From assembly GCA_944371905.1 (NCBI GenBank), contig CALVYA010000009.1, forward strand, positions 1 through 53,427: DNA of 53,427 bases. Direction: 5' to 3'. Positions 1 to 33,809 of the stretch are shown one piece after another (position 1 is the first letter of the stretch; each line of letters opens with the position of its first letter). The notes beneath the pieces are model-generated. The model saw only the letters and a list, made by a program, of their open reading frames with translations, was not told where the DNA came from and did not search any database. Origin of the DNA: an uncultured Bacilli bacterium (GTDB lineage Bacteria > Bacillota_I > Bacilli_A > RF39 > UBA660). The position numbers and the translations under genes are program-made.

Positions 1-45
1 CAAATGGGAGCTGCCAGTAATATCACCTTATAGGTGTTTAAGTAA

Positions 46-77
46 AACCACTAGTTGAACTAGTGGATTTTTATTTT
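46..77 (+). terminator. Intrinsic terminator of an upstream unit
   Basis: CCACTAGT (48-55) pairs perfectly with ACTAGTGG (59-66) around a TGA loop and is followed by a T-rich tract. It ends a transcription unit that begins before the window; bases 1-45 are too short to identify. Confidence 0.75.
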
Positions 78-468: not shown

Positions 469-1012
469 GATTATATATATTTATAAAAAGATGTGAATTA
501 GATACGTATATATTTCTTATAGACAAATAGAAGCACCAGAAGATAAAATAAATGTATGTAGACGTATTTATAATAAAACTGTAGATCAAAAATTTGATGA
601 TAGAAACGATATTCGTGTACGTCTTGATAAAACACATTTTAAATTAATGTTATTAACGGAAGTTAATGATGTAAGAGATAATTGAATAATATAATAAAAT
701 GCGAAAAAATGTGGAGATATTATAGAGTCAAAAGATGGTTGAGATTTTTAATATTGTAGTTGTAAGTCAGTCGCAGTAGATGAGGGTCATTAATATTTAA
801 GAAGAATTGGTGATCCAAATGATTATGAAGAAATGTTCTTTGCAAGAAAATTAATGAATATTAATATAATTGGTTTTAAAACTGTTAAAACAAGTTTAAA
901 TCAAAATAAAGTTTTATCTAAAAAATATTGCCATTTTTTGTAATATAATGTTTTCTTAAAGTGTAAAATAAAAATTGCTTTTTTTGTAAAATTGCAGTAT
1001 AATTAATTCAAA
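469..1012. other. Decayed coding sequence, no intact gene
   Basis: Readable stretches on the plus strand, for example about 515-684 and 795-940, look protein-like but are broken by multiple TAA/TGA codons and frame changes. I cannot name the source gene. The last 70 bases carry the AT-rich upstream region of the ATPase gene at 1030. Confidence 0.5.
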
Positions 1013-1029
1013 TAAAAAGGAGGGATACT

Positions 1030-2289
1030 ATGAAGTATTTGCCAAGAGTTGTTGATTCAGAAATAGATGAATTGATGGAAATTATGGGAGGAGTACTTAT
1101 TGAAGGCTGTAAATGGTGCGGAAAATCAACTACAGGATCATATCATGCCAAGAGTATTATTGAGTTTCAAAATCCAGATAGAAAGCAAGAATATGATGAA
1201 ATAAGAAATACTAAACCTTCATTATTCTTAAATGGTGAAAAACCTAGAATGTTTGATGAATGGCAAATGTATCCAGTGGTTTGGGATTCAATTAGAACTG
1301 ATATTGATCATTCAGGTAAAAAAGGGCAATATATTTTAACTGGTTCTGCAAGGCCAAGCGAAGGAGAAACAATGCATACTGGGACTGGCAGAATATCAAG
1401 GGTGTTAATGCGACCAATGAGTTTATATGAATCTGGCGAGTCAACTGGTGAAGTTTCATTTAATGATATTTTAGAAGGTAAAGATATTTCTGGTGTTTCA
1501 AAATTATCATTAGAAGTTATAGCAAACATTATCGTAAGAGGTGGATGGCCTGCATCAATTAAGGTTAAAAGTGATGCTAAATATAGATTTGCAAAAGAAT
1601 ATGTCAAATCCTTAGTTCATGAGGAAGTTAAAAAAGTAGATGGTGTAGAAAGAAATCCAGAAAAGATGCAAAATGTATTAAGAAGTCTTGCAAGAAACAT
1701 TTCAACACCTGTTTCTAATTCAACTATTGAATGTGATGTTAAAAATAATTTTGATGATGATATTTCTAGACCAACTTTAACAGATTATTTAAATACATTA
1801 GAAAAATTATTTGTAATTGAAGACGTTAATGCTACTAATTTAAATTTTAGAAGTAAATATGCACTTAGAACAAAACCAAAAAAATATTTTGTTGATCCTT
1901 CTATTGCAACAGCAATACTTGAAATGAAGCCGAATGATTTAATTAAAGACCTAAATACTTTTGGATTTATGTTTGAATCGCTTTGCATGAGAGATTTAAA
2001 AATATATACTCAAAGCTATGGAGGAGATATTACGTTCTATCGTGATGAAAAAGACTTTGAGGTAGATGCAATACTTCGAACAAGTAGTGGAAAATGGGGA
2101 GCAATAGAAATAAAACTTGGTGCTGGATATATAGATGAAGCAGCTGGCAATCTTTTAAAATTTAAAGATCGTGTAGATATTGCAAAATGTGGAGAACCAT
2201 CATTCTTAGCTGTTTTAACAGGGGCAGATTATTCTTATAAAAGAGATGATGGTGTTTATGTAGTGTCTATTGGAACTTTAAAAAATTAA
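1030..2289 (+). CDS. AAA_14/DUF4143-family ATPase
   Basis: This 419-residue protein has the layout of the AAA_14 plus DUF4143 family. A Walker A-like loop (EGCKWCGKSTT) lies near residues 25-35, a FDEWQ Walker B motif around 75-80, and a TGSARPS sensor near 110-116. The C-terminal half contains DFEVDAIL and AIEIKLG, the degenerate PD-(D/E)xK-like fold usual in DUF4143. Members are cytoplasmic ATPases of poorly defined role, often in accessory or defence regions. The start is well supported by AAGGAGGG ending 6 bases before ATG. It lies 23 bp before the Shedu-like gene with no terminator between them, so the two are probably co-transcribed. Family assignment is firm; a joint defence role is inferred. 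Confidence 0.85.
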   Translation: MKYLPRVVDSEIDELMEIMGGVLIEGCKWCGKSTTGSYHAKSIIEFQNPDRKQEYDEIRNTKPSLFLNGEKPRMFDEWQMYPVVWDSIRTDIDHSGKKGQYILTGSARPSEGETMHTGTGRISRVLMRPMSLYESGESTGEVSFNDILEGKDISGVSKLSLEVIANIIVRGGWPASIKVKSDAKYRFAKEYVKSLVHEEVKKVDGVERNPEKMQNVLRSLARNISTPVSNSTIECDVKNNFDDDISRPTLTDYLNTLEKLFVIEDVNATNLNFRSKYALRTKPKKYFVDPSIATAILEMKPNDLIKDLNTFGFMFESLCMRDLKIYTQSYGGDITFYRDEKDFEVDAILRTSSGKWGAIEIKLGAGYIDEAAGNLLKFKDRVDIAKCGEPSFLAVLTGADYSYKRDDGVYVVSIGTLKN

Positions 2290-2312
2290 TTGCTTTAGGA
2301 GGTTTGGGTAAT

Positions 2313-3674
2313 ATGGAATATCTAGGGTTTAAATTTGATGAAAAATTATATTCATTGATTGATAATAATATAGTTGCATCAATAACAGATGATGATGGTA
2401 ATAAAAAAAGCAGAGAAATTTTACTAAAAAAAGGAAAAAAGTATTATTATATTCCAACGTATATTGATAAGGATAATAATATAAGATATTATAAAAGATT
2501 TTTAGATTTTGAAATAGAAATTAATGAATCTTCCATTAATTATTTTTCTGACAAAATATGCGGGAAATCATTAAATGAAAGTCAAACTTTAGAATCTATA
2601 TGTAATATTGTTAAACGTTTTCTAAATAAGACTAAGATAATAATTGATATAAATAAAAAATACTCTTTAAATAGTAATTCTGTTACAATAAATGAAAAAT
2701 TTATAAATGATATTAAGGGATTAGATAGAGAAATAAGAAACCTTGATAATGTTTTTAATAGTATGAAATTTTCTAAATCAAATCAATATTTATGTGGCAA
2801 GAAATATATTAAGACGTTAAAGTCTCATAAAGCGTTGTACCAATCAAACATATTATCTGATGTATTAAATTCAACAGTTTTAGCATATTCTGATGATACT
2901 ATAATAAATAAATTATCTGATAACGATATTGAAACTATGAAAAAAACTATTAGTAAACTATCATCTGTTTTGGATTTTAGATTTATTAAAAATGTTCAAG
3001 AAAAAGAGTTATTAAAGGAAGCAATTTGTGTGGGGGAAAAGATTTTATCTATAAAAAATGAAACCTCATCTAAGAAGTCTATAATAAATATTTATGAAAC
3101 TCATTTAAAGCAAAGACAGTTTGATAAATTTTTTAAACCAGTTGGAAAAATTCATTTGGAAAAATTGTGGGAAGCCTATATAACCAAATATTCAAGCTTG
3201 ATTTTTGATGTAGATCGTTCAAATATTAATAATCAATTTGAAATTAAAAGGACAAATAGAAAATATATTCCAGATTTTGTTATGTCTGACTTATATGGAA
3301 CAAAGACTATAATAGAAATCAAGACGCACATTCCTCAAGTAGTTAATTATGATAATTCACATGATTGTTTGTATTTCTCTTCTCCATGCAATAAGGCTAT
3401 TGGGCAATTACAAAGTTATATTAAGAAAAGCGTTTTATCCGAAAATGATGACAAAGAATATTTTTCTTCAGCAAAAGGAATAATAATTATTGGTAACAGA
3501 CATGTAGATCAGCAAAAAAACATTAAAGATTTAAATATTCCTAAAAATGAAGAACCAATAGATTACTATTACAAAAGTCTGAGAGATTTAAATTCGGTTT
3601 TGATTAATATTGAAATCATTTATTTTGATGATCTAATAGAATCTATGAAAAAAAGGTTAAATCGTTTTATTTAA
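2313..3674 (+). CDS. Shedu-like (DUF4263) anti-phage nuclease, SduA type
   Basis: This 453-residue protein has a C-terminal third with the Shedu/DUF4263 pattern: IPDF near residues 316-319, IEIK near 333-336 (the PD-(D/E)xK catalytic Asp, Glu and Lys), the serine-rich AIGQLQSY element, GIIIIGNR near 388, and a final strand-helix IEIIYFDDLIESM. Known SduA proteins are single-gene anti-phage nucleases whose N-terminal regions vary and act in sensing. The N-terminal 270 residues here match nothing I recognise. ATG 2313 is chosen over the in-frame TTG at 2304 because AGGAGG (2297-2302) is 10 bases from ATG and only one base from TTG. It follows the DUF4143 ATPase in a probable operon, and a broken paralogous fragment lies just downstream. 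Confidence 0.78.
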   Translation: MEYLGFKFDEKLYSLIDNNIVASITDDDGNKKSREILLKKGKKYYYIPTYIDKDNNIRYYKRFLDFEIEINESSINYFSDKICGKSLNESQTLESICNIVKRFLNKTKIIIDINKKYSLNSNSVTINEKFINDIKGLDREIRNLDNVFNSMKFSKSNQYLCGKKYIKTLKSHKALYQSNILSDVLNSTVLAYSDDTIINKLSDNDIETMKKTISKLSSVLDFRFIKNVQEKELLKEAICVGEKILSIKNETSSKKSIINIYETHLKQRQFDKFFKPVGKIHLEKLWEAYITKYSSLIFDVDRSNINNQFEIKRTNRKYIPDFVMSDLYGTKTIIEIKTHIPQVVNYDNSHDCLYFSSPCNKAIGQLQSYIKKSVLSENDDKEYFSSAKGIIIIGNRHVDQQKNIKDLNIPKNEEPIDYYYKSLRDLNSVLINIEIIYFDDLIESMKKRLNRFI

Positions 3675-3727
3675 ATAACTAGGGAACCCTTAGTTCGGCG
3701 TGTTAACAAAGTTCAATACTCTGAATT

Positions 3728-3781
3728 TTCAAAGTACAAAAATTGTACTTTGAAATTGCTTTTTGCATGAAAATGCAAAAA
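3728..3781. repeat. Two tandem perfect hairpins behind the Shedu-like gene
   Basis: TTCAAAGTACAA (3728-3739) pairs with TTGTACTTTGAA (3743-3754) around AAA. TTTTTGCAT (3760-3768) pairs with ATGCAAAAA (3773-3781) around a GAAA tetraloop. Neither has a clean run of T, so they are weak terminators at best. They sit between the intact Shedu-like gene and the broken copy and may mark a rearrangement point or stabilise the mRNA 3' end. Confidence 0.5.
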
Positions 3782-3850
3782 TATTATCATATTCCAAGAT
3801 ATATCGATAAAGACAATGATATAAATATTATAAAAGATTTTAAGATTTTC
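3779..3850 (+). pseudogene. Broken second copy of a Shedu-like gene (fragment)
   Basis: About 70 bases are clearly similar to 2439-2507 inside the intact Shedu-like gene. Translation gives YYHIPRYIDKDNDI, against YYYIPTYIDKDNNI in the intact protein, after which a deleted base shifts the frame. Several silent and conservative changes show an old divergence, so this is a paralogue remnant or old tandem duplication. Confidence 0.65.
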
Positions 3851-4600
3851 GTTATAGTTACTACTGCAACTTTTTATCACTATTATTATTTTTTAACATT
3901 AAAGCTAAAAAACAATTGATGATGATTTAAATGTAAAATTACATCAGTGGATGCTGAGGATGAAATAAATATTGCTAAATGGTATTTGTCTTAAAAAGAC
4001 ATTAATTATTCAATATGAAATATTACTAATAGTGAAGATGTTGTAACACAGTATGGGTGATGTATGGTGAAGAAAATGCTCTATACATTAAAATTCATTT
4101 ATCAACTGTTGAAAAAATTTAGATATTACTATTTGATCTTCAACACAAACGCTAAATAGTAGTGATGCTTTTATTTTAACTGACGAAACTAATATCTATG
4201 CAACAAGAATTATTGGTGGATAATTAGGATTATTAGTTATTGATGATTCTACGGTTATTAACAACTTTATATTATTAAATGGTTAATATTTGATTCGATT
4301 TGGTAGACATTACATGACTTCGAAAGATGCGCAAATACATATATTGATTTGGAATAAATTAACACTCATAATACAGATGATAGTTCTGTTGTTAACTATC
4401 AAATTGAAGAAAATCAATTAGAAAGACATGTAGTAACAATGTACGAAGTGAATGTTACGTCTAATAATGACAAAGTGTTTATGTTGTGAATGGATACAGT
4501 GCTTTCATAGGTATAATTAGTATGACTGTTTGCTTACATAAAAGTAGAGATATAGCTTAATAATATATTCTAAATATATAGATCAATATTAGAGTGTTGC
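3851..4600. other. Gene-free rubble between defence patch and copper operon
   Basis: Plus-strand frames contain short protein-like runs (about 4050-4130, 4190-4260 and 4370-4480) separated by TAA, TAG and TGA codons and frame changes. No family could be recognised. The end (4591-4609) has AGAG-TGTTG-CTCT followed by seven T, a weak hairpin that could terminate upstream transcription. Confidence 0.45.
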
Positions 4601-4622
4601 TCTTTTTTTGTTTGTATTAAAA

Positions 4623-4631
4623 TGATATAAT
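4623..4631 (+). promoter_or_regulatory. Extended -10 promoter of copZ-copA
   Basis: TGATATAAT gives an extended -10 (TG, one base, TATAAT at 4626-4631). No good -35 hexamer lies 16-18 bases upstream. The leader is about 30 bases to the TTG start. No clear CsoR operator is visible. Confidence 0.55.
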
Positions 4632-4670
4632 TGTAATAAATAATAATATAAATTAAAAGGAGGAACCGTT

Positions 4671-4877
4671 TTGAAAAATATAGTTATTAAAGTTAGTGGA
4701 ATGCATTGTAGTGGATGTGAAAATAGAATTAAAAATGTTTTATCAGATATCGAAGGAGTAGAAGAAGTAAAAGCTAATTATCAAGATGGCGTTGTAACTG
4801 TTAACGCTAATGAAAGTATTGATGTATCTACTTTGAATGAGAAAATAGAAGATTTAGGTTTTGAGGTAGAGGAATAA
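4671..4877 (+). CDS. copZ: CopZ-like copper chaperone (HMA domain)
   Basis: This 68-residue soluble protein is a single heavy-metal-associated domain. It has the copper-binding loop GMHCSGC (Cys13, Cys16), the usual length, and the ferredoxin-like pattern ending in GFEVEE. The family carries Cu(I) in the cytoplasm and hands it to the N-terminal HMA domain of a P1B ATPase, here encoded 3 bp downstream. The start is TTG at 4671, fixed by AGGAGG at 4658-4663 with a 7-base spacer; no ATG gives a full domain. A CsoR-family gene that could regulate this pair lies about 44 kb away. Confidence 0.9.
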   Translation: MKNIVIKVSGMHCSGCENRIKNVLSDIEGVEEVKANYQDGVVTVNANESIDVSTLNEKIEDLGFEVEE

Positions 4878-4880
4878 GTA

Positions 4881-7091
4881 ATGAAAAAAATTATTTTATC
4901 TATTGATGGAATGACTTGTAGTGCTTGCTCCAATGGATTAGAAAAATATTTAAATAAGCAAAAGGGTATTACTAATGCATCGGTTAATTTAGTTATGAAA
5001 AATGCAACTATAGAATATGATGAAAAGTTGTTAAATATAGATGATATTGAAAAATTTGTCAAAGAGTCTGGTTTTAAAAGTTTAGGATTATACGATATCA
5101 AAAAAGAAAAAAAGAATAATAATCAAAATAAATTTACTTTTCTATTCTTTTTAATATTAGCTATCATTTTGATGTATATTTCTATGGGTCATATGGTAGG
5201 ATTACCTATAGTAGATGCTTTAAATATGCAAATAAGCCCAATTAATTATACTGTAACACTATTTATTTTATCTTTATTATTTATTGGTTATGGATTAGAT
5301 ATTATTATAAGTGGTATAAAGAATTTACTTCATAAAACTCCTAATATGGATACTTTAGTATCTATTGGAGTTATTAGTAGTATGCTTTATAGTATATATA
5401 GCATGTACATGGTTTTTAATGGTAATCATAGTTATGTAGAACAATTATATTTTGAGTCAGCTGCTATTGTTATTTTCTTTATAAAATTAGGGAGATATAT
5501 AGATAGTATTAGCAAAGATAAAACAAAAGAAGCTATACAACAACTTGTTCAAATAACTCCTAATGATGCTATTATAAAAGTTAAAGGGAAAGAAAAGAAA
5601 GTTACACTGGATGAAATAAAAAAAGGCGATATAGTAATCAGTAGACCAGGAGATAAAATTGCAGTAGATGGTGAAATTGTATCTGGAAAAAGTCATGTAG
5701 ATGAATCTTTTATCACAGGAGAAAGTAGGCCAGTTGCTAAAACAATAGGTAATAAAGTAATTGCTGGTAGTATAAATTATGATGGATATTTAGAGTATAA
5801 AGCTGTAAAAATTGGTAAGGAATCAACCATATCTGAGATAGTTAGATTGGTAATTGAAGCAACTAATACAAAAGCACCCATTGCTAAGATAGTGGACAAG
5901 GTAAGTGGGTATTTTGTATCCATAGTAATTTTAATTGCTATTGTAACTTTCTTAATATATGTGATACTAGGATATAATGTTGGTAACTCCATTAATGTGT
6001 TTGTAACTATTTTAGTTGTTGCTTGTCCTTGTAGCTTAGGTTTAGCAACACCACTAGCTATCATAGTTAGTGAAGGAATATGTGCTACTAATGGAATATT
6101 AGTAAAAAAGAGTGAAGTGTTGGAAAATGCTAGTAAGACTAATGTAGTTGTCTTTGATAAGACAGGAACCCTAACTTATGGAAGTTTACAAATATCTAAA
6201 ATAATTAATTACAGCAAGATGAAGGATGAAAATATATTACAAATTGTTGGAAGTTTCGAAAGTAAATCTACTCATCCTGTTGCAAAACCATTTATAGAGT
6301 ATTTGAATGATCACAAAATAAAAGTATTAGAGGTAGATGAATTCAAAAATATTAGTGGTTATGGAATCGTGGGTAAAATAGAGAATAAAGATATTATTTT
6401 AGGTAATGAAAAAATACTTACTAAATATAAGATCAAGAATGATTACAAAGATGATGAAGAAAAAATATCTTCAATGGGTAATAGTATTGTTTATGTAGTT
6501 ATTAATAAAAAAATAGTTGCTATTATTGGTATTAATGATATTATAAAAGACAATGCAAAAGATGTAATAACTAATTTAAATAAAAGAGGTATTAAAACTA
6601 TTATGTTAACAGGTGATAATAGTAAAACCGCTACTCAAATAGCTAATAATTTAGGTATTAAGGAAGTAAAAGCTAATATGTTACCTAAGGATAAAGCTAA
6701 TTTTATAAAGGATTTAAAACAAAACCATAATATAGTTATAATGTGTGGAGATGGCATTAATGATAGTGTTGCTTTAGCCAATAGCGATATAGGTATTAGT
6801 GTCAATAGTGGAACTGATATAGCGATGGACTCTTCTTCCGTTATTTTAACTAATAATAATTTGAATAGTATTATTAATTTAATAAATATTAGTACTAAGA
6901 CAATAAAAAATATCAAACAAAATTTATTTTGGGCATTTTTCTATAATAGTTTAATGATTCCTATTGCGATTGGATTATTTGCACCATTGGGTATTACTAT
7001 TAATCCAATGATTGCTAGTTTTGCAATGGTAATTAGTAGTTTTACTGTTATTCTTAATGCTTTAAGATTAAGAAGGATAAAGATATCTTAA
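4881..7091 (+). CDS. copA: Copper-exporting P1B-type ATPase
   Basis: This 736-residue membrane ATPase exports Cu(I). It shows one N-terminal HMA domain (GMTCSAC, Cys13/Cys16), transmembrane helices from about residue 85, the phosphatase-loop TGES, the ion-site CPC (Cys382, Cys384) of copper and silver pumps, the phosphorylated Asp426 in DKTGTLT, the STHPVAKP nucleotide motif and the hinge GDGINDS. One rather than two HMA domains is common in Firmicutes. It starts 3 bp after copZ stops and shares its mRNA; its SD lies inside the copZ stop region. A weak AT-rich hairpin ends the unit. Copper is preferred over silver because of the chaperone. Confidence 0.93.
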   Translation: MKKIILSIDGMTCSACSNGLEKYLNKQKGITNASVNLVMKNATIEYDEKLLNIDDIEKFVKESGFKSLGLYDIKKEKKNNNQNKFTFLFFLILAIILMYISMGHMVGLPIVDALNMQISPINYTVTLFILSLLFIGYGLDIIISGIKNLLHKTPNMDTLVSIGVISSMLYSIYSMYMVFNGNHSYVEQLYFESAAIVIFFIKLGRYIDSISKDKTKEAIQQLVQITPNDAIIKVKGKEKKVTLDEIKKGDIVISRPGDKIAVDGEIVSGKSHVDESFITGESRPVAKTIGNKVIAGSINYDGYLEYKAVKIGKESTISEIVRLVIEATNTKAPIAKIVDKVSGYFVSIVILIAIVTFLIYVILGYNVGNSINVFVTILVVACPCSLGLATPLAIIVSEGICATNGILVKKSEVLENASKTNVVVFDKTGTLTYGSLQISKIINYSKMKDENILQIVGSFESKSTHPVAKPFIEYLNDHKIKVLEVDEFKNISGYGIVGKIENKDIILGNEKILTKYKIKNDYKDDEEKISSMGNSIVYVVINKKIVAIIGINDIIKDNAKDVITNLNKRGIKTIMLTGDNSKTATQIANNLGIKEVKANMLPKDKANFIKDLKQNHNIVIMCGDGINDSVALANSDIGISVNSGTDIAMDSSSVILTNNNLNSIINLINISTKTIKNIKQNLFWAFFYNSLMIPIAIGLFAPLGITINPMIASFAMVISSFTVILNALRLRRIKIS

Positions 7092-19809: not shown

Positions 19810-22954
<3,145 letters not shown>

Positions 22955-29796: not shown

Positions 29797-32127
29797 TTAC
29801 TTGTATTTATTATATTTATTAATGGTGTCTAATGTAAATTTTATAAAATCGTCCACTTGTTTTCCTTCTGGTATTTTTTTCATATATTTATAAATGTCAG
29901 ATATATCGTTAATAATATCTTGTTTATAGGCTAATAAAAAGTGTTTGTTAAATTCTTTTAATATTAAATATAGTAAGTAAAAATCTTTTGCTCCTCCTTT
30001 TCGAGGCTTATCAATATAAGGATTTAATATTTTTATAAGTTTATTAGGATCATTATCAAATAAGGTATTGATTTTTTCTAAAAATATTTCTATTTCTTTA
30101 ACTGAATTAATAAATTTTTCTTTTTCATGTGAATCAAATTCGATTTTTTCTAATAATATAGTAATAGCAAATTTTTTATCAAAGCTGACTTTTAATTCAT
30201 TATCTTTATTATACATATATATTCTAAGAACATTGTTAATATTATGTATATTATATTCTTTAAAATCAAAGTAAGCTAAAGTTATAATTAGTTCTTCATT
30301 TTTCATTTTTTTATTATTTTGTTTAAGAAAAGGACTATATTTTTTAGCTATTTGTTTTGTTAGAGATAATATATCTACACAATCAAACGAATTCCACATT
30401 TCAAAAGAGTTATATAAAATGGGGTAAGGTTTAGAATTTAATCTTAGGAACATATCTACTGGTTTAAATTCAGTATTATTATTTTCAGTAATTTCTAAAC
30501 AATCTATTTCATAATTTAATATTTGCTCTAAAAGATGAGATTCAATTTCGTCACATGTTTTGTTGTTTAAAAATTCCGATCCTCTTAAATTAGTTAATTT
30601 AAATTTAAATTTTTTAGGTCTTGCTAATTCTCCTTCAGCATTGGTGATTAATTCTCCTAAAAATGATAAGATACTGATAATTCTTTGTTGCCCATCGATC
30701 ACTTCATATATTGGTACACCGTCATTCCCTTTCCTAGAATAGACGTAAATAGGGGGTAATTTAATTCCTAAAATAATACTTTCAATAATTTTAGAAGCAA
30801 TATTCTTATTACTAATTTCTTCTCTTTGATAAAAAGGGCGTACAAAAAATCTACCTTTTACAATTTTATCAATAATGTCTTTTATTTTAAAACTAGTTTC
30901 TCTACTAATTACACTATGAATTGTAGCTAGTTTAGTATATATTTCGTTTTTCTTAATCATTTTTTTAGGTCTTCTTTTTAGTGCTTCTTTTGCTTCTTTC
31001 AAATCATTTAAATAATTAGCGATAGATATATTTAATTCGTTCTCTAAATATTTTTTCATAAAATTATGGCGTTCTATAATGCTATTAGAAGTCATATTTT
31101 TATAATTATCAAAGAAATCTTTGGTTGATGGATTTTCTTCAATGAAATTACAGAATTTATTGATGCTAAAATTATAATAATCTTCTGGAAAATAATCATA
31201 TAGAATAGATAACATCCAGTACACAGCTTTGAAAAATAAAATATTATCTAAAACAGGATTATTAAATGAAGCTAATTTTTCTTTGATGAGAATTGTCTTT
31301 TTTATTATAGTTTCAAATTTTTGAATAATCTCATCATAATCTTTGGCTAATACATATCGATTGTAATATTCATCTATAATATCAGCAGAAAAATTTACAT
31401 TTTTGGATTCAATAATAGATATATAAGGGATAGTTAATAATTCTCTGATGTTTACTAACATTAAATTAATTAATTCCCTTTTTTCAATGTTTCTTTTTGA
31501 TTTAGGAATAAAAACATTGATAAAATTTACATATGGCTCTTCGTTATTTTTAATTTTGCTTTCAAATAATTGACTTAACTTATCATAAGCATAACTTGCT
31601 CTTGCTACTTCATTTTTAGATAAGGAAGACATGCCACTATTATAACGTCTAAATAAATCTCTTTTTAATAATTCTTCACATTCAATTGGATAATCAACTC
31701 CAAATTTAAAACTATATACAATTAATCTTAATTTGAAACTTTGTAGTATTTCTTTAGCATTTTCAGGTAAACTTGTATAAGTACATCCTTCTAATTCAGG
31801 AAGTTTGTTTAAACCTGATTTTTTTAATCTAAATTTATTTTCACAGAATTTTTTGATGCTTTCGTATCTTTGCCTTCCATCAATGATTTCTATTACATTA
31901 TTAATCCTAGTAACAGTTAAAGGAGGAATTTCTCCATTTAAAATAATTGTTTCAATTAATTTAGTAGCTTTTTCTATAGACCATACATAATATCTTTGGT
32001 AACTAGGACTATAATTTACTACTTCATTATTTTCTTCAAAAAATAATTCTTTTATAGTAGGATTTTCAGGATTTCTATCTACATATTGATATAATTTTCT
32101 TAAATCTTTATTTATAGTACTACTCAT
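29797..32127 (-). CDS. Tandem DUF262 (ParB-like) protein
   Basis: This 776-residue protein carries two DUF262 modules. The first has PSYQRYYVW near residue 42 and DGRQRYES near 85. The second has RPFYQREE near 429 and DGQQR near 479. DUF262 is the ParB/Srx-like domain of GmrS-type modification-dependent restriction enzymes and of several phage-defence proteins; its DGQQR motif is needed for NTP use. The usual DUF1524 HNH nuclease partner is not visible. Start ATG 32127 is chosen because GGAGAGGAG lies 8-10 bases upstream; the longer frame to 32202 has no SD. A TATACT -10 precedes it. It is divergent from a UvrD-like helicase. A defence role is inferred. Confidence 0.82.
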   Translation of the reverse strand: MSSTINKDLRKLYQYVDRNPENPTIKELFFEENNEVVNYSPSYQRYYVWSIEKATKLIETIILNGEIPPLTVTRINNVIEIIDGRQRYESIKKFCENKFRLKKSGLNKLPELEGCTYTSLPENAKEILQSFKLRLIVYSFKFGVDYPIECEELLKRDLFRRYNSGMSSLSKNEVARASYAYDKLSQLFESKIKNNEEPYVNFINVFIPKSKRNIEKRELINLMLVNIRELLTIPYISIIESKNVNFSADIIDEYYNRYVLAKDYDEIIQKFETIIKKTILIKEKLASFNNPVLDNILFFKAVYWMLSILYDYFPEDYYNFSINKFCNFIEENPSTKDFFDNYKNMTSNSIIERHNFMKKYLENELNISIANYLNDLKEAKEALKRRPKKMIKKNEIYTKLATIHSVISRETSFKIKDIIDKIVKGRFFVRPFYQREEISNKNIASKIIESIILGIKLPPIYVYSRKGNDGVPIYEVIDGQQRIISILSFLGELITNAEGELARPKKFKFKLTNLRGSEFLNNKTCDEIESHLLEQILNYEIDCLEITENNNTEFKPVDMFLRLNSKPYPILYNSFEMWNSFDCVDILSLTKQIAKKYSPFLKQNNKKMKNEELIITLAYFDFKEYNIHNINNVLRIYMYNKDNELKVSFDKKFAITILLEKIEFDSHEKEKFINSVKEIEIFLEKINTLFDNDPNKLIKILNPYIDKPRKGGAKDFYLLYLILKEFNKHFLLAYKQDIINDISDIYKYMKKIPEGKQVDDFIKFTLDTINKYNKYK

Positions 32128-32267
32128 TAAATATACTCCTCTCCTGAATAAGTATAACATTATTTCTTCTTTTGTCGATATTTTTTTGCCTAAATTTACC
32201 AATGAAATTTAAAATTTAATGATTTGTATTTTGATAAGATTATATAGATAATGAACTAGGTGATTTT

Positions 32268-33809
32268 ATGGATGACAAAATTAGTGGTTATGATTTAGAT
32301 AGTAATCAACGACAAATAGTGATGGATGAAAGTCAGAATTTATTAGTAGTAGCAGGTGCAGGTAGTGGGAAAACTTTAACTATTTTAGGAAAAATTAATT
32401 ATTTGATTAAATATAAGAATATTTTACCTAGTGAAATATTATGCATATCTTTTACTAGAGCATCTGCTAATAGTTTAAAAGATAAAATATTAAAAGAATT
32501 TGGTTGTAATATGAATGTATATACCTTTCATAAATTATCTCTAGAGATATTAAAAGAACATAATATGAATCATTATGAAATTGCGGATGATAATACTTTA
32601 GAAAATATAATTCATGAATTTTTTTGTATCGATATTTATGATTATCCAATTTATTTAAGAAAGTTTTTCACTTATTTCAAATTAGATTCTACTCCTAATT
32701 TAAAGAAGGAATATAAAAAATTTTATTATCATAATTATGAAAAGATAATTGCTTTTGAAAAATTATTATCAACTTTTTTAAGATTGTTTAAATGTAACAA
32801 TTATTCAATTGAAACATTTCCGGTATTTTTGAAGAAAGCTAGAAAAACAATATTTTATTTTAAATATCAGAAAGAAAAAATATTTTTAAGTTTTGCACTT
32901 AATTTATATTTAATGTATCAAAATTACTTAAAAGAAAATAATGAAATAGATTTTGATGATATGATTATTAATGCTACTAAGATAGTTGATAAATTAGGTA
33001 TAAAGAATAATTATAAATATGTAATTATAGATGAATATCAAGATACTTCTATTGTTAGATTTAACTTAATAAAAAGTATTTTAGAGAAGACGAAAGCTAA
33101 ATTTATGGTAGTTGGAGATGATTTTCAATCCATATATCGATTTACTGGATGTGAATTATCATTATTTGTTAATTTTGCTCATTTTTTTGATTATACTAAA
33201 ATTATGAAAATAGAAAATACTTATCGTAACAGTCAGGAATTAATTAATATTGCAGGTAAGTTTGTTATGAAAAATAAGTCGCAAATGAATAAAAATTTAA
33301 GATCTAATAAGCATTTGGATTATCCCATTGAAATAATTTATTATAATAATATACATCAAACATTTTATGACTTGATTTTAAGAATGATTCATATTAGTAA
33401 TAATTCTATTATGATTTTAGGACGTAATAATAATGATGTGAATTTAATATTAAATGATAAATTTAAGTTACAGGAAGAAGGAAGAATTATATTTGAAGAG
33501 AACAAAAACATAAAATTATATTTTTTAACAGTACACAAATCTAAAGGCTTGGAAGAAGATAATGTAATTATTATCAATTTAGAAAATAAATTATTAGGAT
33601 TTCCTAATCAAATAATTGATGAAAAGGTTTTAAGATTAGTTTCTAACGATTTTGAAAAGTATCCATATAGCGAAGAACGAAGGTTGTTTTATGTAGCGCT
33701 TACTAGGACTAAAAATAAAGTGTATTTACTAGTTCCGAAAAAAGCTCCTTCTATTTTTGTACAGGAACTAGTTACAAGATATAAGAAAAATTTAAAGATA
33801 TATAATTAA
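32268..33809 (+). CDS. Short UvrD/Rep-type superfamily 1 helicase
   Basis: This 513-residue DNA helicase has Q-motif DLDSNQRQIV, Walker A VVAGAGSGKT, motif II VIIDEYQDTS, motif III GDDFQSIYRF, motif IV-like YRNSQELI, motif V TVHKSKGLE and motif VI EERRLFYVALTRTK. Housekeeping PcrA/UvrD has about 720 residues, so the accessory subdomains are shortened, resembling the helicase-only proteins of accessory and defence loci. SD AGGTGAT precedes ATG; TTGTAT (32224) and GATAAT (32247) form a promoter with a 17-base spacer. It is divergent from the tandem-DUF262 gene with a 140-bp shared regulatory gap. Confidence 0.85.
   Translation: MDDKISGYDLDSNQRQIVMDESQNLLVVAGAGSGKTLTILGKINYLIKYKNILPSEILCISFTRASANSLKDKILKEFGCNMNVYTFHKLSLEILKEHNMNHYEIADDNTLENIIHEFFCIDIYDYPIYLRKFFTYFKLDSTPNLKKEYKKFYYHNYEKIIAFEKLLSTFLRLFKCNNYSIETFPVFLKKARKTIFYFKYQKEKIFLSFALNLYLMYQNYLKENNEIDFDDMIINATKIVDKLGIKNNYKYVIIDEYQDTSIVRFNLIKSILEKTKAKFMVVGDDFQSIYRFTGCELSLFVNFAHFFDYTKIMKIENTYRNSQELINIAGKFVMKNKSQMNKNLRSNKHLDYPIEIIYYNNIHQTFYDLILRMIHISNNSIMILGRNNNDVNLILNDKFKLQEEGRIIFEENKNIKLYFLTVHKSKGLEEDNVIIINLENKLLGFPNQIIDEKVLRLVSNDFEKYPYSEERRLFYVALTRTKNKVYLLVPKKAPSIFVQELVTRYKKNLKIYN

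What the first reader, a model, noticed from the sequence alone, without database searches (positions are those of the whole stretch)
2313..3674. Shedu-like nuclease behind a DUF4143 ATPase: possible two-gene defence unit
Seen: DUF4263-type catalytic motifs (IPDF, IEIK, GNR and the terminal IIYFDDL) and a 23-bp gap to an AAA/DUF4143 ATPase with no terminator. Known: SduA usually acts alone against phage; the N-terminal domain is the sensor and varies. Inference: the ATPase may be an extra regulator or sensor, and the novel N-terminus a new sensor type.
Basis: partly seen in the sequence, partly recalled or inferred. Interest (0 to 1): 0.6.

Follow-up and report, generated by a model that had tools for sequence, protein, structure and literature searches.

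The report
Solo Shedu nuclease beside unrelated ATPase
A gut-type bacterium carries an anti-phage Shedu nuclease gene with an unfamiliar front half, and the ATPase gene 23 bases before it is a common stand-alone gene that is never next to a Shedu gene in the related genomes examined, so this is most likely two independent genes side by side and not a new two-gene system.

Summary
ORF 2313-3674 is a Shedu-type nuclease: Pfam SduA_C 44.1 bits against a cut-off of 27, with the catalytic D, E-x-K and Q intact and a fold match to B. cereus and E. coli SduA. A 419-aa AAA/DUF4143 ATPase (1030-2289) lies 23 bp upstream with no terminator between them. The two-gene interpretation is not supported. The ATPase is PADLOC's single-gene candidate PDC-S01. 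Its 88%-identical copy in the same genus keeps the same promoter region but has no nuclease, and DNA similarity stops 2 bp after the ATPase stop codon. That ATPase lineage is under purifying selection (dN/dS 0.06). No Shedu gene was found beside any of 47 other fetched ATPase loci, and no DUF4143 ATPase beside any of about 50 other Shedu loci. The pair sits in a gene-turnover site bounded by an IS200 end, decayed genes and the conserved copZA locus; four same-genus genomes lack the pair there. The nuclease's first ~260 residues match no Pfam, PADLOC or PHROGs family, including SduA_N, so an unclassified sensor half remains possible, but variable N-termini are already the known rule for Shedu. 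Verdict: a new member of a known kind, low interest.

The parts
1..77 (.). end of an IS200-type (Y1 transposase) element; multicopy repeat at which the contig breaks
   Evidence: 5 copies in the genome, 4 at or near other contig ends; homologous repeat beside a Y1_Tnp gene in G002 and an IS200-like ORF in G003
948..1029 (+). promoter region of the ATPase, conserved with the solitary copy in the same genus; TTGCTT-N-TATAAT-like and AGGAGG
   Evidence: 82.6% DNA identity over 948-2291 with G004 and alignment of the 5' side
1030..2289 (+). AAA_14 / DUF4143 ATPase, PDC-S01 type; Walker A GCKWCGKS, DEWQ, C-terminal E..D..EIK
   Evidence: Pfam and PADLOC hits; 88% identical solitary ortholog
2290..2312 (+). 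23-bp gap with ribosome-binding site, no terminator
   Evidence: sequence, terminator scan
2313..3674 (+). Shedu-type nuclease, 453 aa; residues 1-~260 unclassified, ~263-453 SduA_C PD-(D/E)xK nuclease
   Evidence: Pfam SduA_C 283-442; PADLOC SduA; fold match Z 10-11 over residues ~250-453
3727..3755 (+). terminator-like hairpin (13 pairs) followed by T-rich tail, downstream of the nuclease
   Evidence: 0.8 expected in shuffles, so weak on its own
3770..3893 (+). decayed partial duplicate of the nuclease N-terminal coding region (2429-2547), 82 bp of it at 85% identity
   Evidence: local score 101, shuffle maximum 50
4529..7091 (+). start of the conserved copZ-copA block; right border of the variable site
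   Evidence: 94% DNA identity with G001 from 4529 on; copA found in four same-genus genomes

Best explanation
The nuclease is a single-gene Shedu defence protein with an unclassified N-terminal half. By analogy with the solved Shedu proteins it would assemble through its C-terminal nuclease domain, stay inactive until its N-terminal half recognises a feature of invading DNA (DNA ends in E. coli SduA), and then nick or cut that DNA. The ATPase just upstream is a separate solitary PDC-S01-type candidate. The nuclease gene landed behind it in a gene-turnover site and is probably read from the ATPase's promoter, since no terminator separates them, but the two proteins are not a conserved functional unit. 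Shown here: family, catalytic residues, fold match and lack of conserved pairing. Inferred: shared transcript, assembly, DNA sensing, anti-phage effect.
For: SduA_C and PADLOC SduA matches; a profile from 8 Shedu-type sequences finds only Shedu entries 8ti8, 8ti9/8tia, 8ps4/8ps5 strongly in the PDB; D321, E335-I-K337 and Q365 invariant; alignment-based model matches Shedu chains at Z 10.4-11.3 over 148-189 residues, above the next row, FokI, at 8.2 (Foldseek 1.6e-4). Against pairing: 88% ortholog in G004 with other neighbours, similarity ending at 2291, dN/dS 0.057; 0 of 47 ATPase loci with a Shedu, 0 of about 50 Shedu loci with a DUF4143 ATPase, window pair recovered as positive control; DUF4143 common in the family (111 of 192 genomes), Shedu rare (5 of 192 over cut-off); five plasmid copies also solitary. 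Variable site: IS200 end, decayed flanks, other content in same-genus genomes.
Against: The 23-bp same-strand gap and absence of a terminator are what a co-expressed pair looks like. No close relative of this nuclease was found, so its own lineage cannot be checked for pairing. No second genome of this species was examined.
Confidence: 0.8

Rival explanations
1. The two genes form a genuine ATPase-plus-nuclease defence unit, with the AAA/DUF4143 protein sensing infection or licensing the Shedu nuclease.
For: Same strand, 23-bp gap with ribosome-binding site, no terminator between the genes and a terminator-like hairpin after the second. Both are defence-type genes. VcSduA needs a fused GHKL ATPase domain (PMC12137116), so ATP-dependent control of a Shedu nuclease is not absurd.
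Against: No other instance of the pair. The 88% ortholog of the ATPase lives without the nuclease under strong purifying selection. In V. cholerae a GmrSD-like pair and SduA that sit side by side were shown to be independent (PMC12137116).
Confidence: 0.06
2. The nuclease is a recent, non-functional arrival in a decaying region and neither gene product matters here.
For: Genes on both sides are decayed, a fragment duplicate of the nuclease lies downstream, and no homolog is available to measure selection.
Against: 453-codon frame intact in a region where its neighbours are full of stops; all catalytic residues kept; GC3 0.163 like the intact genes (0.143-0.156) and unlike the decayed flanks (0.24-0.26).
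Confidence: 0.1
3. The protein is a PD-(D/E)xK nuclease of another kind (for example Card1/Can2-like or restriction-like) and not a Shedu.
For: Card1, Can2, McrC and FokI cleavage domains appear further down the fold list at Z 5.9-8.2.
Against: Only Shedu models pass the sequence cut-off; Shedu structures rank first by Foldseek and VIA-align.
Confidence: 0.03

Closest known systems
Shedu (SduA, DUF4263 / SduA_C PF14082), e.g. Bacillus cereus 8ti8 and Escherichia coli 8ps4
   Same: C-terminal nuclease domain by profile, catalytic residues and predicted fold; single-protein gene of usual length; own N-terminal half
   Different: N-terminal ~260 residues match neither SduA_N (PF21407) nor anything else in Pfam, PADLOC or PHROGs; overall identity to other Shedu proteins only about 12-22%
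PDC-S01 (PADLOC single-gene phage-defence candidate; ATPase fused to a PD-(D/E)xK-like domain)
   Same: The upstream gene matches PDC-S01 over its full length at 188 bits and is solitary elsewhere; reported as the fourth most common defence system across prokaryotes (PMC12988326)
   Different: Here it happens to precede a Shedu gene by 23 bp
VcSduA, type I-D Shedu of Vibrio cholerae with fused GHKL ATPase
   Same: A Shedu nuclease domain associated with ATPase function (PMC12137116)
   Different: There the ATPase is an N-terminal domain of the same protein and of the GHKL fold; here it is a separate AAA_14/DUF4143 protein without conserved linkage

Membership tests
Shedu (SduA) | C-terminal SduA_C/DUF4263 domain above curated cut-off | tested here: met
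   PF14082 44.1 bits vs 27; PADLOC SduA
Shedu (SduA) | PD-(D/E)xK catalytic residues D, E-x-K and the conserved Q | tested here: met
   D321, E335, K337, Q365 invariant in a 29-sequence alignment
Shedu (SduA) | nuclease-domain fold of solved Shedu proteins | tested here: met
   Z 10.4-11.3 to 8ti9, 8ps4, 8ps5, 8ti8; pLDDT only 49-87 in most of that domain, and the alignment used contained Shedu relatives
Shedu (SduA) | SduA_N (PF21407) N-terminal domain (B. cereus type; not required of all Shedu) | tested here: not met
   no match at E up to 10, whereas the Shedu of G124 matches at 1.5e-21 in the same scan
Shedu (SduA) | homo-oligomeric assembly and anti-phage activity | not testable with these tools
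   needs experiment
PDC-S01 | full-length AAA plus DUF4143 ATPase matching the PADLOC models | tested here: met
   PDLC04790 E 4e-56 over residues 1-414; AAA_14 and DUF4143
PDC-S01 | occurs as a single-gene system | tested here: met
   no Shedu or other constant partner next to homologs
   0 of 47 ATPase loci and 0 of about 50 Shedu loci outside this genome; four same-genus genomes lack the pair at this site

The most novel reading that the evidence does not exclude
In this lineage only, the PDC-S01 ATPase has been recruited as a partner of a Shedu nuclease whose new N-terminal half docks on it, giving a recently assembled two-protein version of Shedu.
Probability: 0.05. Interest if true: 0.5.

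Novelty: new member of a known kind. Interest (0 to 1): 0.17.

Why it matters
It adds one divergent Shedu, with a front half unlike any library family, to a family already known for variable sensor domains. It is also an example of how adjacency of two defence-type genes in a turnover site can be mistaken for a system. If the N-terminal half proves to be a distinct sensor, it would extend the list of Shedu triggers.

Tried and rejected
Search for close homologs of the nuclease: none in 392 phylum and 385 order genomes beyond a 37% C-terminal match, none in plasmids, viral contigs or genome contigs. An apparent N-terminal match at a contig end in G267 (E 7e-4 for one genome, with stop codons) was set aside: it is not significant over the several hundred genomes searched. 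Single-sequence structure prediction failed (pLDDT 33); the alignment-based model is usable only for the C-terminal domain. A weak DUF4143-like hit beside a Treponema Shedu is a shikimate kinase. Weak Pfam hits in the N-terminus (Rsd_AlgQ 0.01, PH_8 0.11) are far below cut-off. No fold is claimed for the N-terminal half; structural rows that touch it (residues 123-270) are generic helical matches at Z 5-7.

Full report
What is there. Pfam gives one family, SduA_C (the former DUF4263), at 44.1 bits against a curated cut-off of 27, and PADLOC gives SduA. A profile made from eight Shedu-type sequences of this phylum, the window protein first, finds the solved Shedu proteins 8ti8, 8ti9/8tia and 8ps4/8ps5 in the PDB and nothing else of note. 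In an alignment with 28 Shedu proteins from other organisms D321, E335, K337 and Q365 are invariant, so the PD-(D/E)xK active site is intact. A model built on that alignment is moderate for the C-terminal domain (block pLDDT 49-87) and poor before residue ~190. It matches Shedu chains best, both by Foldseek (1.6e-4) and by VIA-align (Z 10.4-11.3 over 148-189 residues, with FokI next at 8.2). The alignment contained Shedu relatives, so the fold match is supportive and not independent of the sequence match.

The upstream gene. ORF 1030-2289 is an AAA_14 plus DUF4143 protein with Walker A GCKWCGKS, a DEWQ Walker-B-like motif and a C-terminal E..D..EIK set, as read from the sequence. PADLOC files it under PDC-S01 at 188 bits over its whole length. 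PDC-S01 is described as a single-gene candidate with an ATPase fused to a PD-(D/E)xK-superfamily domain, the fourth most common defence system across prokaryotes, with experimental proof pending for most such candidates (PMC12988326). It is also the most frequent single locus in a rumen survey (PMC13356809).

Is it a pair? Within this genome the arrangement looks like a small operon: 23-bp gap, AGGAGG in it, no terminator between the genes, and a terminator-like hairpin at 3727-3755 after the nuclease (0.8 such sites expected by chance). Across genomes it is not a unit. The ATPase has an 88%-identical ortholog in a same-genus genome (G004) and further relatives of 38-63% identity; none has a Shedu gene beside it. 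The DNA similarity to G004 covers exactly the promoter region and the ATPase gene (948-2291, 82.6%) and stops two bases after the ATPase stop codon. Between these two copies dN/dS is 0.057, so the gene is maintained, and in G004 it is maintained without the nuclease.

A two-way survey by local HMMs over six-frame translations gave no Shedu beside 47 fetched ATPase loci (at least one gene is present there twice) and no DUF4143 ATPase beside about 50 distinct Shedu loci from many phyla and three viral contigs, while the window pair was recovered as positive control. The one weak hit is a shikimate kinase. Flanks were mostly 1.5 kb for ATPase loci and up to 6 kb for Shedu loci. DUF4143 genes are very common in this bacterial family (111 of 192 genomes, up to 17 per genome) and Shedu genes are rare (5 of 192 above cut-off), so an occasional chance neighbour is expected. 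Copies of the ATPase family on plasmids of Bacteroides, Collinsella and Lentilactobacillus are solitary too.

Where it sits. The window is a whole contig. Its first 77 bases are the end of an IS200-type element, present at five places of the genome; homologous repeats flank a Y1 transposase gene in G002 and an IS200-like ORF in G003. Between it and the ATPase, and between the nuclease and the copper genes, lie reading frames broken by many stops, among them a partial duplicate of the nuclease's own N-terminal coding region at 3770-3893 (82 bp at 85% identity). From 4529 on, the copZ-copA block is 94% identical to G001, where the upstream DNA instead holds a phage-type integrase and an unknown gene. 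G002, G003 and G004 have copA with yet other neighbours (G004's contig begins there) and without the pair. This is a gene-turnover site, which explains how two unrelated defence-type genes can end up adjacent.

How it most likely works. By analogy with solved Shedu proteins, the nuclease domain forms the oligomeric core and the N-terminal half keeps it in check until it meets its trigger. For E. coli SduA a tetramer with an N-terminal clamp binds DNA ends and nicks at a fixed distance (Loeff et al. 2025, as reviewed in PMC12904381). [quoted passage not shown] 2025, cited in PMC12137116). What the N-terminal half of this protein recognises is unknown. It matches neither SduA_N (PF21407), which does match another Shedu of the same family, nor any other library entry. 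A transcript shared with the ATPase is likely but unproven. In V. cholerae a GmrSD-like pair and VcSduA are adjacent and were shown genetically to be independent (PMC12137116), a useful precedent.

Verdict. Main limits: no close homolog of the nuclease was found anywhere, so the pairing test rests on the ATPase lineage and on other Shedu proteins, and the N-terminal half could not be modelled.

Noticed in passing
window 1-77: End of an IS200-type element, five copies in the genome, four at or near other contig ends, so the assembly breaks at it.
   Followed up: yes
window 3770-3893: Decayed partial duplicate of the nuclease's N-terminal coding region (2429-2547), 82 bp of it at 85% identity; hints at a former second copy.
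   Followed up: partly
window 29797-32202 (-) and 32268-33809 (+): GmrSD_N/DUF262 protein of 801 aa (PADLOC NsnA, REase_II and PD-T4-2_A partial matches) divergent from a 513-aa UvrD-like helicase; possible further defence genes.
   Followed up: no
window 19810-22915 (-): Mob_Pre relaxase next to a large serine recombinase: a small mobilisable element.
   Followed up: no
L132 (G001) 2029-4863: Integrase plus a 339-aa protein without Pfam match inserted upstream of copZA in a same-genus genome.
   Followed up: partly
GTDB family of the window's genome: DUF4143 ATPases are strongly expanded: up to 17 copies per 1.3-Mb genome.
   Followed up: no
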